64,000 bases of DNA, taken from Robertmurraya sp. FSL R5-0851 (GTDB lineage Bacteria; Bacillota; Bacilli; Bacillales; Cytobacillaceae). The position numbers were made by a program, and so were the translations under genes. Shown piece by piece: positions 32,218 through 39,933 of the stretch. The stretch spans positions 2,027,001 to 2,091,000 of the forward strand of contig NZ_JBBOOE010000001.1 of assembly GCF_038002965.1 (NCBI RefSeq), written 5' to 3'. How positions within the stretch are numbered: position 1 is the stretch's first letter; each line of letters begins with the position of its first letter. The notes beneath the pieces were generated by a model. That model searched no databases. It had not been told where the DNA came from and worked only from the letters and a program-made list of their open reading frames with translations.

Positions 32218-32994
32218 TTATTTCATCGTATATCCACCATCAACGATAATGGTTTGACCTGTTACAAATCGAGCCCAATTACTAGCTAAATATAGGGCTG
32301 TTCCTGTAACATCTTCAGGTCGGGCAATTCTCCCAAGTGGTGTTTCAGCAACAATGACTGATTTCACTTCCTCTTTTGTTCGTTTACTTGCTTCTGTCGG
32401 ATACACAAGCCCTGGAGCAATACAGTTAACGGTAATACCGAATCTTCCTAGGTCAGCGGCTAGGTTTTGAGAATAGGTCATGACCGCTCCCTTGGCTGTG
32501 TTGTAGTCATGGTAAGGTACAATCGGGCGATACAATAAATTGGTTGTCATATTTATGATTCGACCGAAGTTCATATCTTTCATATGCGGTATTGCGTATT
32601 TATTCAGGAGATAGGTCCCCTTTAAGGAACCATCGATTTGTTTTTGATAGTCTTCCCACTCTACTTCCCATGCCCATTTTCTCTCTGTAGGATCAAAAAG
32701 GTAGCTATGGAGGGCATTATTAACCACAATATCGATCCGATCAAACTCTTCAATTACCATGCTTATCAATCTTTTTACATCGTTTTCATTCGTCACATCC
32801 GCTTGAATGGGTAGACAGTCCACTCCGTATTCTTTTTGTAATTTGTCCGCGAGTATTTCTGCCTTTTCTGCATTTTTTAAATAATTTATAACGATATGAC
32901 ACCCTTCGGAGGCGAAGCTTTCAGCAAATGCAGCTCCAATGCCTCGGCTTGAACCCGTGATCATGCATACCCTTCCTGCTAATGAGAGATTCAC
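32218..32994 (-). CDS. SDR-family oxidoreductase (FabG-like) embedded in the thiamin operon
   Basis: 258 residues. NAD(P) site TGSSRGIG, NNA motif (VVNNALHS), catalytic YNTAK, and the FabG-like end VTGQTIIVDGGYTMK. The residue 13 before the catalytic Tyr, normally Ser, appears to be Thr (NMTTNLLY). GTG start with AAGGGGTG upstream. It lies 11 bases after the binding-protein gene and ten bases before tenI. In this setting it could reduce an aldehyde made by the LuxC/LuxE pair to an alcohol (inference). Confidence 0.9.
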   Translation of the reverse strand: MNLSLAGRVCMITGSSRGIGAAFAESFASEGCHIVINYLKNAEKAEILADKLQKEYGVDCLPIQADVTNENDVKRLISMVIEEFDRIDIVVNNALHSYLFDPTERKWAWEVEWEDYQKQIDGSLKGTYLLNKYAIPHMKDMNFGRIINMTTNLLYRPIVPYHDYNTAKGAVMTYSQNLAADLGRFGITVNCIAPGLVYPTEASKRTKEEVKSVIVAETPLGRIARPEDVTGTALYLASNWARFVTGQTIIVDGGYTMK

Positions 32995-33005
32995 ATTAAC
33001 ACCCC

Positions 33006-34007
33006 TTACTTCAGCTGTTCAACAAGTTCATTTGTGGTAAGGTCTTCTATATTAACCGCTTTTTGTAGTAATCCCATTTCTACGTAAGACGCTTCAACCT
33101 CTTTTAAAACGGTAAAGTCGAACATACCCAGACCGTTGTTGTTCTCACTAGTTTGGTTTCTAATCGCAATAATCTCTTTGTTTCGTGTGATATTGGTTCC
33201 GTCCACTGCATGCTTCGTTGCTATATCAGCTGCCTCATCTGGGTTCTCCATCGTATACTCTATGCTATCTTTATAGACCTGAAGAAAGCGGATAAGAAGA
33301 TCTTTCTTTTCGTTAAATACCTTTTCTGTCACAACAAACACATCAGATGGAGTATTTAGCACATCTTTTACTTCAATGATATTTACTTCGCCTAAGCCCT
33401 TTTGCTTTGCATCATACAAACCGGTATCTGTAGCAGCGGTAGCAGCTACTTGCCCTTCCATCAAAGGGGCGAAATTAAGAACGCCGGTTGCCGTTATCGT
33501 CATTTCCTCTTCCTTCACTCCTGCGTCATGCAAAAGCACTTGTAAATTTTGATAGGTCCCACTAGCCAAGCTATATACTCCGACATTTTTTCCTTTTAAA
33601 TCCTCTATGGATTGAATATTACTTTCCTTTAAGGAAACTAAGTTAAATACGTTTTCAGGATAAATATTATAAATGATCTTCAATTTTTCACCTTTTTCGA
33701 CAGCTAACAATACGGCCTCTAGGTTTGCGAAAGCAATATCAGCATTTCCAGCCAGGATGTTCTTAACTGCATCTCCTCCACCAGCACCAGGTATGTACTC
33801 AAATGTAAGGTTTTCTTTTTCAAAAAAACCTTTATCCTCAGCCACATATAAGTTGCTTTGTTCAACAATTGGTTTACTCCATGAGGCCATTCGAATCGTT
33901 TCCCTTTGATTTTCTGATTCCGTTGCTTGACTACTTTCCTTTGAACAGCCTGCTATGATGACTGTTAAAACTAGTAAAATTGGTAGAACTACTTTAATGA
34001 ATTTCAC
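33006..34007 (-). CDS. ABC importer substrate-binding lipoprotein, NMT1/ThiY-like
   Basis: 333 residues. Lipoprotein signal with lipobox IIAGC, then an SsuA/NMT1-type domain (LYVAEDKGFFEKENL, ADIAFANLEAVL). The family binds pyrimidine or sulfonate-like ligands, and ThiY binds formylaminopyrimidine. GTG start (CGGAGG upstream) overlaps the permease stop by four bases. Ligand here is probably a thiamin precursor or breakdown product, from the TPP-riboswitch setting. Confidence 0.88.
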   Translation of the reverse strand: MKFIKVVLPILLVLTVIIAGCSKESSQATESENQRETIRMASWSKPIVEQSNLYVAEDKGFFEKENLTFEYIPGAGGGDAVKNILAGNADIAFANLEAVLLAVEKGEKLKIIYNIYPENVFNLVSLKESNIQSIEDLKGKNVGVYSLASGTYQNLQVLLHDAGVKEEEMTITATGVLNFAPLMEGQVAATAATDTGLYDAKQKGLGEVNIIEVKDVLNTPSDVFVVTEKVFNEKKDLLIRFLQVYKDSIEYTMENPDEAADIATKHAVDGTNITRNKEIIAIRNQTSENNNGLGMFDFTVLKEVEASYVEMGLLQKAVNIEDLTTNELVEQLK

Positions 34008-38037: not shown

Positions 38038-39153
38038 TTAAGATGAATGTGTTAGTATTTCCCAATCTTTTACGACAGGTTGATATCCAAGTTCTCTCAG
38101 TGATTCCTTTACCTCTGCCACACTTCTTTTGTCCGAAATTTCGAATTGACTATGAGTATGTTCTTTATTGGCATATCCCCCGACAACGGTAGATGAGGCA
38201 GCAGACATTTTGGTCACTCCTAACGGAAGTAAATGACGTCTTAGTTCCGCGCTTTCTCGTGTTGATAGAGTCATACCTGCACGTGGTAAAAATAAACGAG
38301 ATGCCAGCATTGCTTGAACTAAATTTTTATCAGATACATCGACCTTTGGTTGGAAACCACCAAGGTTTGGGCGTATTCGAGGAAAGGATAGAGCAATATC
38401 CGTTTCGAGATAATTTCTTTGTAAGTAATGAGCATGAAGTCCTGTGAAAAAGACCTCCTTACGCCACTCATCCATTCCTAGTAGTGCTCCGATATTGACG
38501 GATCTCATGCCAGCTTTGGCACCTCTTTCAGGTGCATCTAGTCGATAGCGATAATTGCGTTTCGGTCCCTTTAAGTGATGCTTTTTATAGATTTCTTCGT
38601 TGTACACTTCTTGGTACACCGTTAATCCATCAATTCCACGGGCAACGAGCGTTTGGTACTCTTCCGTATCTAATGGCTGTATCTCAATGGATAAAGAAGA
38701 AAAATACTTTTTCATCACATCAATCGTTTCACACAAATAATCTACCGAGGAATGGAGGCGAGATTCTCCCGTTAGCAAGATAATATGTCGTAATCCCATT
38801 TTGACAAGTGCCTTTGATTCTTCTTCAATTTCAGCCAGGGTCAATTTTCTACGTGGAAAATCATTATCAATACTAAAGCTGCAGTACGTACATTTGTTCA
38901 CACAATAATCGGTTAAATACAGTGGTGCGTATAATTGAATCGTACGGCCAAAATGCTGTACGGTACGTTGATGTGCCTTTTGTGCCATTTCTTCTAGACA
39001 ATTTTCAGCAGCTGGAGATAAAAGAATCAAGAAATCTTCTGTATGAAGTCTCTCTTTTTGCAAAACCCTTCTTACGTCTTGAGTAGTGATGGTAGAAAAA
39101 AAGTCGTCAAATGGATAATATTTTACTTTTACATACTCATCATAAAATGACAT
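38038..39153 (-). CDS. thiH: ThiH, radical-SAM tyrosine lyase (2-iminoacetate synthase)
   Basis: 371 residues. The radical-SAM cluster motif is C84-x3-C88-x2-C91 (YCVNKCTYC). It cleaves tyrosine to dehydroglycine and p-cresol for thiazole formation by ThiG. The ATG at 39153 has AGGTGAG four bases upstream; the GTG three codons earlier is weaker. Starts nine bases after the thiG stop. The use of ThiH instead of ThiO suggests that thiazole synthesis works under low oxygen. Confidence 0.94.
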   Translation of the reverse strand: MSFYDEYVKVKYYPFDDFFSTITTQDVRRVLQKERLHTEDFLILLSPAAENCLEEMAQKAHQRTVQHFGRTIQLYAPLYLTDYCVNKCTYCSFSIDNDFPRRKLTLAEIEEESKALVKMGLRHIILLTGESRLHSSVDYLCETIDVMKKYFSSLSIEIQPLDTEEYQTLVARGIDGLTVYQEVYNEEIYKKHHLKGPKRNYRYRLDAPERGAKAGMRSVNIGALLGMDEWRKEVFFTGLHAHYLQRNYLETDIALSFPRIRPNLGGFQPKVDVSDKNLVQAMLASRLFLPRAGMTLSTRESAELRRHLLPLGVTKMSAASSTVVGGYANKEHTHSQFEISDKRSVAEVKESLRELGYQPVVKDWEILTHSS

Positions 39154-39162
39154 TCCACTCAC

Positions 39163-39933
39163 CTACCCTAAAAATCCTGTTAATGGAGATGACGCTTGTG
39201 CTGTCGTTGTTGTCTGTCCTACTCCACTCGAGTAAGCTTTCCTTCCAGCCTTGACTGCTAAGTCGAATGCAATGGCCATTTCAACGGGATCCTTAGCTGT
39301 AGCAATGGCTGTGTTTACCAGTACAGCGGCTGCTCCCATTTCCATCGCTTCCGCTGCTTCAGATGGCTTTCCGATTCCTGCATCAACAATGATTGGAAGC
39401 TCCATCTCTTCTATCAAAATTTGGATCAATTCCTTCGTGCGAATACCTCGATTTGAACCGATAGGAGAACCAAGTGGCATAATTGCTGCTGCTCCAGCAT
39501 TTTGCATCGCTTTTGCTGCCATTAAGTCTGGGCTCATATAAGGTAGAACGATAAACCCTTCATTCGCTAAGATATCAGTTGCCTTAGCTGTTTCGTAATT
39601 GTCAGGAAGCAAGTACTTTTGGTCGGAAATGACCTCAATTTTAATCCAGTTCCCCATGCCGGCTGCTCTTGCAAGTCGGGCAATTCGAACCGCTTCGTCC
39701 GCCGTTCTTGCTCCCGACGTATTCGGAAGTAGAATCATGTCTTTAGGAATGTATTCTAAGATGTTTTCTTCTCCAGTAGCATTCAGGTCTACTCGTCTTA
39801 AAGCGACTGTGACGACTTGTGAACCGGATTGGGTTAGTGCTTCTTTCATTAGCTTGTGATTATAAAATTTTCCAGTTCCTGTTAGTAGTCGGTTATGTAG
39901 CTGCGTGTTCCCAATCGTTAATAAGTCGGTCAT
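39163..39933 (-). CDS. thiG: ThiG, thiazole synthase
   Basis: 256 residues, TIM barrel. Starts MTDLLTIGNTQLHNRLLTGTGKF, with LPNTSGARTADEAVR and VDAGIGKPSEAAEAMEMGA (phosphate site) family-typical. Builds the thiazole from DXP, dehydroglycine and ThiS-thiocarboxylate. AGGAGGAACC precedes the ATG. First gene of the second riboswitch-controlled operon. Confidence 0.95.
   Translation of the reverse strand: MTDLLTIGNTQLHNRLLTGTGKFYNHKLMKEALTQSGSQVVTVALRRVDLNATGEENILEYIPKDMILLPNTSGARTADEAVRIARLARAAGMGNWIKIEVISDQKYLLPDNYETAKATDILANEGFIVLPYMSPDLMAAKAMQNAGAAAIMPLGSPIGSNRGIRTKELIQILIEEMELPIIVDAGIGKPSEAAEAMEMGAAAVLVNTAIATAKDPVEMAIAFDLAVKAGRKAYSSGVGQTTTTAQASSPLTGFLG

What the first reader, a model, noticed from the sequence alone, without database searches (positions are those of the whole stretch)
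32218..39933. LuxE-LuxC carboxylate-reduction module plus ABC importer and SDR inside a TPP-riboswitch thiazole operon
Seen: thiG-thiH and tenI-thiS-thiF are separated by six tightly packed genes: LuxE-like acyl-protein synthetase, LuxC-like reductase, ABC ATPase, permease, ThiY/NMT1-like lipoprotein and an SDR. All lie in one direction with overlaps or gaps of at most about 14 bases, behind one TPP riboswitch. No luciferase genes exist. Known: LuxE activates a carboxylate, LuxC reduces it to an aldehyde; ThiXYZ-type importers bring in thiamin precursors. Inference: the module imports an oxidised thiamin-related acid (for example thiamin acetic acid, thiazole acetic acid or the pyrimidine carboxylate). 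It would reduce it to aldehyde and then to alcohol through the SDR, producing HET or HMP for ThiM/ThiD next door. I know of no described salvage route of this kind.
Basis: partly seen in the sequence, partly recalled or inferred. Interest (0 to 1): 0.88.

Follow-up and report, generated by a model that had tools for sequence, protein, structure and literature searches.

The report
Vitamin B1 salvage by carboxylate reduction
A set of enzymes related to those that make the aldehyde for bacterial light emission appears to have been recruited, together with an importer and under a vitamin B1 (thiamin) sensor, to take up an oxidised piece of the vitamin and reduce it back to a usable building block.

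Summary
On the minus strand, behind a TPP riboswitch, thiG-thiH and tenI-thiS-thiF are separated by luxE, luxC, ABC ATPase, permease, ThiY-like lipoprotein and an SDR. The arrangement is no local accident. In 99 distinct luxE loci from several phyla, luxE-luxC-SDR usually travels with an importer: ABC, or an NCS2 permease in one clade. In 95 of 99 a TPP aptamer lies upstream in the same direction within 2.1 kb. Two Lactobacillaceae plasmids carry the cassette riboswitch-NCS2-luxE-luxC-SDR.
Of its candidate substrates the evidence favours the pyrimidine carboxylate, giving HMP. Of 40 broad module genomes, 17 lack a full ThiM and 16 of those also lack TPK, so HET or thiamin would be of little use to them. 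Nine are thiC-/thiM-/thiG+, eight of them with luxE behind thiD. The binding protein models closest to FAMP-binding ThiY and a thiamin-binding protein. ThiW adjacency keeps the thiazole alternative alive. No biochemistry was done; the substrate is inferred. My searches of an open library listed no description.

The parts
42538..42648 (-). TPP riboswitch 1, leader of thiM-thiE-thiD
   Evidence: Rfam RF00059 83.4 bits
41623..42441 (-). thiM, hydroxyethylthiazole kinase
   Evidence: PF02110 hit in the window genome, E 1.6e-89 at this place; ORF
40973..41626 (-). thiE, thiamin phosphate synthase
   Evidence: ORF, name by reading; relatives found with it
40137..40952 (-). thiD, HMP(-P) kinase
   Evidence: ORF, name by reading; relatives found with it
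40035..40131 (-). TPP riboswitch 2, leader of the operon that carries the module
   Evidence: Rfam RF00059 65.6 bits
39163..39933 (-). thiG, thiazole synthase
   Evidence: PF05690 E 1.8e-107
38038..39162 (-). thiH, 2-iminoacetate synthase
   Evidence: TIGR02351 523 bits, cut-off 380
36958..38025 (-). LuxE/PaaK-family acid-activating enzyme (module gene 1)
   Evidence: PF04443 E 1.5e-28; invariant Gly-Cys-Ser, Cys340, aligned with 7XC6 LuxE
35534..36967 (-). LuxC-family acyl reductase (module gene 2)
   Evidence: PF05893 E 5.3e-101; invariant Cys287 in DQQxC, aligned with 7XC6 LuxC
34768..35568 (-). ABC importer ATPase (module gene 3); true start may be about 45 bases later
   Evidence: PF00005 E 2.9e-32; best NCBIfam matches, all under their cut-offs, are nitrate, SaoA and taurine ATPases
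34004..34771 (-). ABC importer permease (module gene 4)
   Evidence: PF00528 E 4.2e-30
33006..34007 (-). ThiY/THI5-like binding lipoprotein (module gene 5)
32218..32994 (-). SDR oxidoreductase (module gene 6), inferred aldehyde-to-alcohol step
   Evidence: PF13561 E 5.8e-58; present with both importer types and in the minimal version
31584..32210 (-). tenI, thiazole tautomerase
   Evidence: PRK07695 TenI 236.5 bits, a little under its cut-off of 251; PF02581 E 2.2e-34
31397..31600 (-). thiS sulfur carrier
   Evidence: 67-aa ORF ending in GG between tenI and thiF, name by reading
30376..31506 (-). thiF/moeB-type adenylyltransferase; true start probably near 31389
   Evidence: NF009123 556 bits, alignment begins at residue 40

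Best explanation
The six genes are a thiamin-precursor salvage module. Shown by sequence: a ThiY-type binding protein with ABC permease and ATPase, a LuxE-type acid-activating enzyme, a LuxC-type acyl reductase and an SDR, kept together as a unit and placed behind TPP riboswitches in several phyla. Inferred mechanism: the importer takes up an oxidised thiamin fragment that carries a carboxylate; LuxE adenylates it and loads it as a thioester on its C-terminal Cys; LuxC takes over the acyl group on its Cys and reduces it with NAD(P)H to the aldehyde; the SDR reduces the aldehyde to the alcohol. The most likely substrate is 4-amino-2-methylpyrimidine-5-carboxylate (a known thiamin catabolite), so that the product is HMP, which ThiD phosphorylates and ThiE couples to thiazole phosphate. 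When TPP is plentiful the riboswitch shuts the route. Confidence in 'TPP-controlled carboxylate-reducing salvage module' is about 0.9; the figure below is for the full statement with HMP as product.
For: (1) Unit and regulation: of 193 family genomes 40 have a LuxE match, 34 of them strong. Of these 34, 18 hold all six genes, 15 are of the type without ABC importer (14 of them with an NCS2 permease before luxE), 1 lies on a short contig; a TPP aptamer precedes 33 of 34. Of the 80 best loci of a wider scan (15 of them the same as before), 70 hold all six genes and 78 have an aptamer match upstream, 2 of those marginal (one row corrected by hand). (2) Pyrimidine side: in 19 of the 80 loci thiD directly precedes luxE; at 14 of 18 inspected junctions the thiD stop overlaps an in-frame ATG of luxE (ATGA or TGATG), at one more a GTG. 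In Metabacillus fastidiosus (L093) thiD-thiE follow the SDR in the same direction and thiM is absent. Of 40 broad genomes, 17 lack a full thiM, 16 of these lack TPK; 9 are thiC-/thiM-/thiG+, 6 of these also lack TenA. In the family, thiC-less genomes carry the module in 9 of 46 with thiG and 1 of 64 without (Fisher p 0.0016, not corrected for kinship; six of the nine are one genus). (3) Binding protein: closest solved structures are ThiY (FAMP), a thiamin-bound SBP and THI5. (4) The alternative importer belongs to the nucleobase-type NCS2 permeases. (5) LuxE Cys340 and LuxC Cys287 are invariant and aligned with the solved LuxC-LuxE complex. (6) The LuxE model lies nearest PaaK-type ligases, several of them for aryl acids. 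(7) The acid is a real thiamin metabolite: title of Neal and Pearson 1964, seen in the reference list of PMC7780320.
Against: ThiW, described as a thiazole transporter (passage in PMC5627462), sits in the operon in 15 of 34 family loci, and thiM is near in several, which fits a thiazole substrate as well. Module presence is not tied to loss of thiC: in the family 24 of 34 module genomes have thiC against 59 of 159 others, and in a sample of 250 genomes of the family of Ramlibacter alkalitolerans 15 of 23 against 145 of 227. Three of the nine thiC-/thiM- genomes have TenA, another HMP route. Substrate was never assayed; the SBP could bind any aminopyrimidine or whole thiamin derivatives. A thiamin kinase (ThiK) was not searched for. 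One of the 99 loci (L103) has no aptamer match.
Confidence: 0.58

Rival explanations
1. Same chemistry, thiazole side: 4-methylthiazole-5-acetate is imported and reduced to hydroxyethylthiazole (HET), which ThiM phosphorylates.
For: In the window the module lies inside a thiazole operon with thiM in the next operon. ThiW is in the operon in 15 of 34 family loci. All 29 family module genomes tested (of 34) have a full thiM.
Against: 17 of 40 broad module genomes have no full ThiM, among them Ramlibacter isolates, two Azospirillum and Metabacillus fastidiosus. Module genomes usually can make thiazole themselves: thiG in 31 of 34 against 90 of 159 other family genomes. The importer relatives bind pyrimidines, thiamin or nucleobases.
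Confidence: 0.17
2. Thiamin acetic acid is imported whole and reduced to thiamin, which is then pyrophosphorylated.
For: A thiamin-bound SBP, 4NMY, is the best Foldseek and second-best VIA match of the binding protein. By record names, 15 of 16 Firmicute genomes in the broad set have TPK (two of the 15 by partial matches only).
Against: TPK is found in none of the 24 proteobacterial genomes of the broad set. Overlap coupling of thiD to luxE would have no evident purpose. ThiK-type kinases were not searched, so this is weakened, not excluded.
Confidence: 0.1
3. Ordinary long-chain fatty acid reductases that hitch-hike in thiamin operons, as current database names ('long-chain fatty acid--CoA ligase') suggest.
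For: LuxE and LuxC families; names in public records.
Against: Far below the curated cut-offs for the fatty-acid enzymes (88 against 550 and 118 against 750 bits). TPP aptamer in front of 95 of 99 loci, ThiY-like or NCS2 importer, stand-alone riboswitch cassette on small plasmids.
Confidence: 0.05
4. The module acts on another thiamin-related acid or antivitamin (for example an oxidised toxic pyrimidine or an unknown precursor), for detoxification or a still unknown biosynthetic step.
For: The substrate is inferred only; the module co-occurs with both thiC and thiG in 22 of 34 family module genomes.
Against: A TPP riboswitch and neighbouring kinases and transporters fit supply better than detoxification (inference).
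Confidence: 0.1

Closest known systems
LuxC-LuxE fatty acid reductase complex of luminous bacteria (7XC6; with LuxD)
   Same: Same two enzyme families; acid activation by LuxE on a C-terminal Cys, transfer to and reduction by LuxC (recalled); both Cys regions align.
   Different: No luxD, luxA or luxB among the operon genes; far below the curated fatty-acid cut-offs; an SDR, an importer and a TPP riboswitch instead.
ThiXYZ / YlmB / TenA salvage of base-degraded thiamin (FAMP to HMP) in Bacillus
   Same: ABC importer with a ThiY-type binding protein feeding the HMP pool; closest fold is ThiY 3IX1.
   Different: Chemistry differs: deformylation and hydrolysis of an amine there (recalled), ATP- and NAD(P)H-dependent reduction of a carboxylate here (inferred).
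ThiW / ThiM salvage of hydroxyethylthiazole
   Same: ThiW is in the same operon in 15 of 34 family loci, behind the same kind of riboswitch.
   Different: ThiW and ThiM handle an already reduced alcohol; a full ThiM is missing in 17 of 40 broad module genomes.
Carboxylic acid reductases (CAR) and PaaK-type aryl-acid ligases
   Same: Adenylation of an acid, reduction to the aldehyde; LuxE model nearest to PaaK ligases.
   Different: CAR uses one large protein with a carrier domain (recalled); here two separate LuxE and LuxC proteins.

Membership tests
LuxE acyl-protein synthetase family (PF04443) | Profile match over the full length | tested here: met
   E 1.5e-28, residues 11-346 of 355, above gathering cut-off
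LuxE acyl-protein synthetase family (PF04443) | C-terminal Cys that carries the acyl group | tested here: met
   Cys340 in Gly-Cys-Ser invariant in 13 and in 36 sequences, aligned with KGCS of 7XC6 LuxE; its role as acyl carrier is recalled
Long-chain fatty acid LuxE / LuxC of bioluminescence | Curated equivalog score | tested here: not met
   88.2 bits against 550 (NF052244) and 117.9 against 750 (NF052251)
Long-chain fatty acid LuxE / LuxC of bioluminescence | luxD, luxA, luxB partners | tested here: inconclusive
   None among the operon genes; no genome-wide search was made
LuxC acyl reductase family (PF05893) | Profile match and active-site Cys | tested here: met
   E 5.3e-101; Cys287 invariant in 13 sequences, aligned
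TPP riboswitch regulon | RF00059 above gathering score in front of the transcription unit | tested here: met
   Window 65.6 bits. Of related loci given to Rfam itself: at or over the cut-off in L047, L048, L092, L095, L114, L125, L131, L180, L181; not reached in L036, L041, L043, L044, L045, L046 (L046 26 bits), L103, L104, L182 (49 bits)
TPP riboswitch regulon | Expression falls with thiamin | not testable with these tools
   No expression data
ThiY / THI5 (NMT1) binding proteins | NMT1/THI5 profile and fold | tested here: met
ThiY / THI5 (NMT1) binding proteins | Binds FAMP or HMP | not testable with these tools
   21% identity to ThiY; the invariant Ser-Gly-Thr (149-151) has no counterpart in the ThiY alignment; ligand unknown
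HMP salvage pathway | Genetic link to HMP use rather than HET use | tested here: inconclusive
   For: thiD-luxE coupling, thiM-less genomes. Against: ThiW linkage in 15 of 34, no association with thiC loss

The most novel reading that the evidence does not exclude
A horizontally mobile vitamin salvage pathway that I know of no description of: bacteria of several phyla import the thiamin catabolite 4-amino-2-methylpyrimidine-5-carboxylate and rebuild HMP from it with a LuxE-LuxC-SDR reductase. In some Comamonadaceae that lack thiC, thiM and TenA it is the only source of the pyrimidine half of thiamin recognised here, and in lactobacilli it is plasmid cargo.
Probability: 0.5. Interest if true: 0.87.

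Novelty: new variant of a known kind. Interest (0 to 1): 0.8.

Why it matters
If right, oxidation of thiamin is not a dead end in nature: its acid fragments form a vitamer pool that many soil, plant-associated and food bacteria can reuse, and the LuxC-LuxE pair, known from light production, has a wider job in vitamin metabolism. Many genes now named 'long-chain fatty acid--CoA ligase' (examples) would need a new name, predictions of thiamin auxotrophy from missing thiC would change, and the pathway is directly testable with a simple small acid.

Tried and rejected
Rejected or weakened: (a) a coincidence of one genome - the module recurs in 99 distinct loci. (b) thiazole acetate as the default reading - my own view midway, because of ThiW; weakened by ThiM-less genomes. 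(c) the module as a general replacement for ThiC - not supported: 15 of 23 module genomes in the 250-genome sample have thiC, the same share as the rest, 145 of 227 (one weak LuxE match, G260, was dropped and counted with the rest). (d) a luxE-specific variant riboswitch: the stand-alone operons carry a TPP aptamer with two bases missing ('ACCTG--TTGG'), which looked like a new ligand class, but of 30 such sites examined (of 40 found) 27 precede thiM and 3 precede luxE, so it is a salvage-linked subtype, not tied to this module. (e) literature: searches gave no paper; one search gave one unrelated database paper (listing only); one search gave 34 papers, 20 listed, none of those about bacterial thiamin salvage by title; (21 papers, 20 listed) led to PMC5627462 and PMC10470507 (passages seen); (168 papers, 20 listed) to PMC6478431 (two passages, both in its reference list; no occurrence of luxE); one search listed two papers, neither on 7XC6; led to PMC7780320 (one passage, in its references). 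Rodionov et al. 2002, the THI-box survey cited in PMC5627462, was not looked up or read; an SDR called OarX in its THI regulon is recalled only, and one search found no paper with that word.

Limits: 'thiM absent' means no match better than E 1e-70; weak partial PF02110 matches were set aside, one of them (G207, 27.8 bits) just over the Pfam cut-off. 'thiG absent' likewise sets aside matches weaker than E 1e-90. TPK counts take every match over the cut-off; two (G195, G197) are partial. The presence sets were retyped from the genome rows. E-values of the home-made aptamer model R1 are rough, and its 16 training sequences are among the hits. In one search I left out the match position of L100; its aptamer (4091-4199) lies upstream of its luxE match (4270), so 78 of 80 have an upstream match, 2 of them marginal (L127 E 0.027, L136 E 0.048). 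L112 begins inside the operon; L103 has none. The LuxE structure search listed PaaK ligases; 7XC6 was not in its 50 rows, which says nothing. The distant-LuxE control is only six loci. The LuxE tree used one quick FastTree run with 118 tips, duplicates included, and only four of the six distant loci.

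
Full report
What is there. The window lies in a Robertmurraya-like genome (closest named loci L070 and L071, Robertmurraya korlensis, LuxE 92% and 81% identical). On the minus strand a TPP riboswitch (42538-42648) precedes thiM-thiE-thiD and a second one (40035-40131) precedes thiG-thiH-luxE-luxC-ABC-permease-SBP-SDR-tenI-thiS-thiF. 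From thiG to tenI the genes are packed with gaps of -35 to +12 bases.

Conservation as a unit. A search of 193 genomes of the same family with the window LuxE found 40 with a match, 34 at E 1.4e-84 or better and 6 at E 3e-21 or weaker. Stretches of up to 20 kb around 39 of them, with the window as the fortieth, showed four architectures among the 34 strong ones. A, the genus of the window: inside the thiazole operon (4). B: riboswitch-thiM-thiD-thiE, riboswitch-thiW-luxE-luxC-ABC-permease-SBP-SDR (7). C: riboswitch-luxE-luxC-ABC-permease-SBP-SDR alone (7, plus 1 on a 4.6-kb contig that ends in luxC). D: riboswitch, with or without thiW (8 of 15), then an NCS2 permease, luxE-luxC-SDR, no ABC importer (15; the permease is missing in L051), in two cases followed by thiM-thiD-thiE. 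ThiW was identified by TIGR02359 (E 2.6e-51) and the permease as pbuX/NCS2-like; a passage of PMC5627462 calls ThiW specific for thiazole. In a quick LuxE tree B and D are each one clade with support 1.00; the window groups with alkaliphilic and halophilic Bacillaceae at 0.84.

Riboswitch. A covariance model R1 was built from 16 TPP aptamers of these loci, all taken from Rfam hits above the cut-off. It finds an aptamer upstream of the module, in the same direction and within 2.1 kb, in 33 of 34 strong loci at E 2e-10 or better, with nothing, thiW, the permease, thiW and permease, or thiG-thiH in between, and in none of the 6 weak ones. The exception, L046, keeps only the 3' half (26 bits, E 0.006).

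Beyond the family. A scan of genome contigs with a LuxE alignment found 405 relatives and returned the best 80; the other 325 were not seen. The 80 come from Bacillaceae, Desulfosporosinus, Desulforamulus and Desulfotomaculum, Comamonadaceae and other Burkholderiales, Azospirillum and other Alphaproteobacteria, Enterobacter, Erwinia and Pantoea. Fifteen of the 80 have a luxE identical to one already seen, so 99 loci are distinct, the window included. All six genes are present in 70 of 80; of the other ten, seven lie on contigs that end near, and three are the form luxE-luxC-SDR without neighbouring importer in Enterobacter and Pantoea. R1 matches upstream in 78 of 80, 76 of them at E 4e-5 or better (with L100 corrected). 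Over the 99 distinct loci that is 95 clear, 2 marginal (L046 = L127, and L136), 1 cut off (L112) and 1 without (L103). Of seven of these loci given to Rfam, L092, L095, L114, L125 and L131 reach its cut-off before the module; L103 and L104 do not.

Mobility. A search of plasmid records with the Enterobacter LuxE found 28 records, one of them (23% identity, an E. coli K-12 record) not of this kind. The most telling are a 10.3-kb Lactiplantibacillus plantarum plasmid and a 21-kb Levilactobacillus brevis plasmid. Both carry TPP riboswitch (67.6 bits)-NCS2-luxE-luxC-SDR, a stretch of 5 kb identical at 100%; the permease is 60% identical to that of type D. By its annotation table, which may be incomplete, the smaller plasmid has besides these four genes only replication, toxin-antitoxin, integrase, DUF536 and two hypothetical genes. 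A Priestia plasmid has the six-gene form (aptamer 49 bits, below the cut-off).

Enzymes. LuxE Cys340 and LuxC Cys287 are invariant in the alignments and fall on the corresponding Cys stretches of the solved LuxC-LuxE complex 7XC6. The LuxE model (pLDDT 89) is nearest to PaaK-type ligases, several of them for aryl acids. Both enzymes are far below the curated scores for the fatty-acid enzymes. The steps acid to acyl-enzyme to aldehyde follow from what is known of these families (recalled); the SDR as the aldehyde reductase is inferred from its constant presence.

Which half of thiamin? Three tests. (1) Genome content of 40 broad module genomes, one of them (G193) a genome already counted in the family: thiC absent in 16, full thiM absent in 17, thiG absent in 2, TPK present in 15, all Firmicutes by record name. 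Sixteen of the 17 thiM-less genomes also lack TPK. Nine are thiC-, thiM-, thiG+; six of these have no TenA either. There, HET cannot be phosphorylated by ThiM, thiazole is made by ThiG, and HMP is what is missing. (2) Neighbours: thiD precedes luxE in 19 of 80 loci, in eight of those nine genomes among others; at 14 of 18 junctions inspected the thiD stop overlaps an in-frame ATG of luxE. In M. fastidiosus thiD-thiE follow and thiM is absent. (3) In the family, thiC-less genomes carry the module in 9 of 46 when thiG is present and 1 of 64 when it is absent (p 0.0016, six of the nine from one genus). Against: ThiW adjacency in 15 of 34; full thiM in all 29 family module genomes tested; no enrichment of the module in thiC-less genomes (24 of 34 against 59 of 159 have thiC; 15 of 23 against 145 of 227 in the second sample). 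On balance HMP from the pyrimidine-5-carboxylate is favoured; ThiW is then the thiazole arm of a joint salvage operon. The acid is on record as a thiamin metabolite in rat urine (title seen in the references of PMC7780320).

Novelty. Ten searches of the open library (not all aimed at this point) listed no paper on luxE or luxC in thiamin metabolism; most subscription papers are not held, and the 2002 THI-box survey was not read. Where a source names the proteins, it says for example 'long-chain fatty acid--CoA ligase', 'LuxE/PaaK family acyltransferase' or hypothetical. I therefore rate it a new variant of known kinds: a LuxC-LuxE-type reductase in what looks like a new pathway of thiamin salvage.

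Noticed in passing
L036:15462-15570, L041:10571-10679, L043:9181-9286, L044:10633-10740, L045:10653-10761, L047:9169-9277, L048:9250-9357; L150-L179: A TPP aptamer subtype lacks two bases of the conserved ACCTGATCTGG stretch (reads ACCTGTTGG), next to what I recall as the diphosphate-binding junction, while CTGAGA is kept. 40 sites in 38 of 397 genomes of the order, two with one mismatch (reversed pattern: 0); of 30 sites examined 27 precede thiM and 3 precede luxE. It may have changed ligand preference.
   Followed up: partly
L180:1390-6321 and L181:5315-10246: Complete cassette TPP riboswitch-NCS2-luxE-luxC-SDR on plasmids of two Lactobacillaceae genera, 100% identical over 5 kb.
   Followed up: partly
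L046:2899-2978: Half a riboswitch: the 3' part of the aptamer remains before luxE, the 5' half is not recognisable; assembly error or decay.
   Followed up: no
L110:20423-20529: A second aptamer of the short subtype about 10 kb downstream of the first in a Desulfotomaculum MAG; the gene it controls was not looked at.
   Followed up: no
L103 (Cohaesibacter MAG): The one clear module locus with upstream sequence but no TPP aptamer match; its genome also lacks thiC and thiG but has thiM and TenA.
   Followed up: no
L041:3939-4123 and 4322-4518: Two cobalamin riboswitches in a row just downstream of the module in a Neobacillus.
   Followed up: no
window 27982-29868 (+): ORF of 628 aa that reads like a chitinase-type fold with LysM and two peptidoglycan-binding repeats, probably a spore or cell-wall hydrolase (by reading only).
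   Followed up: no
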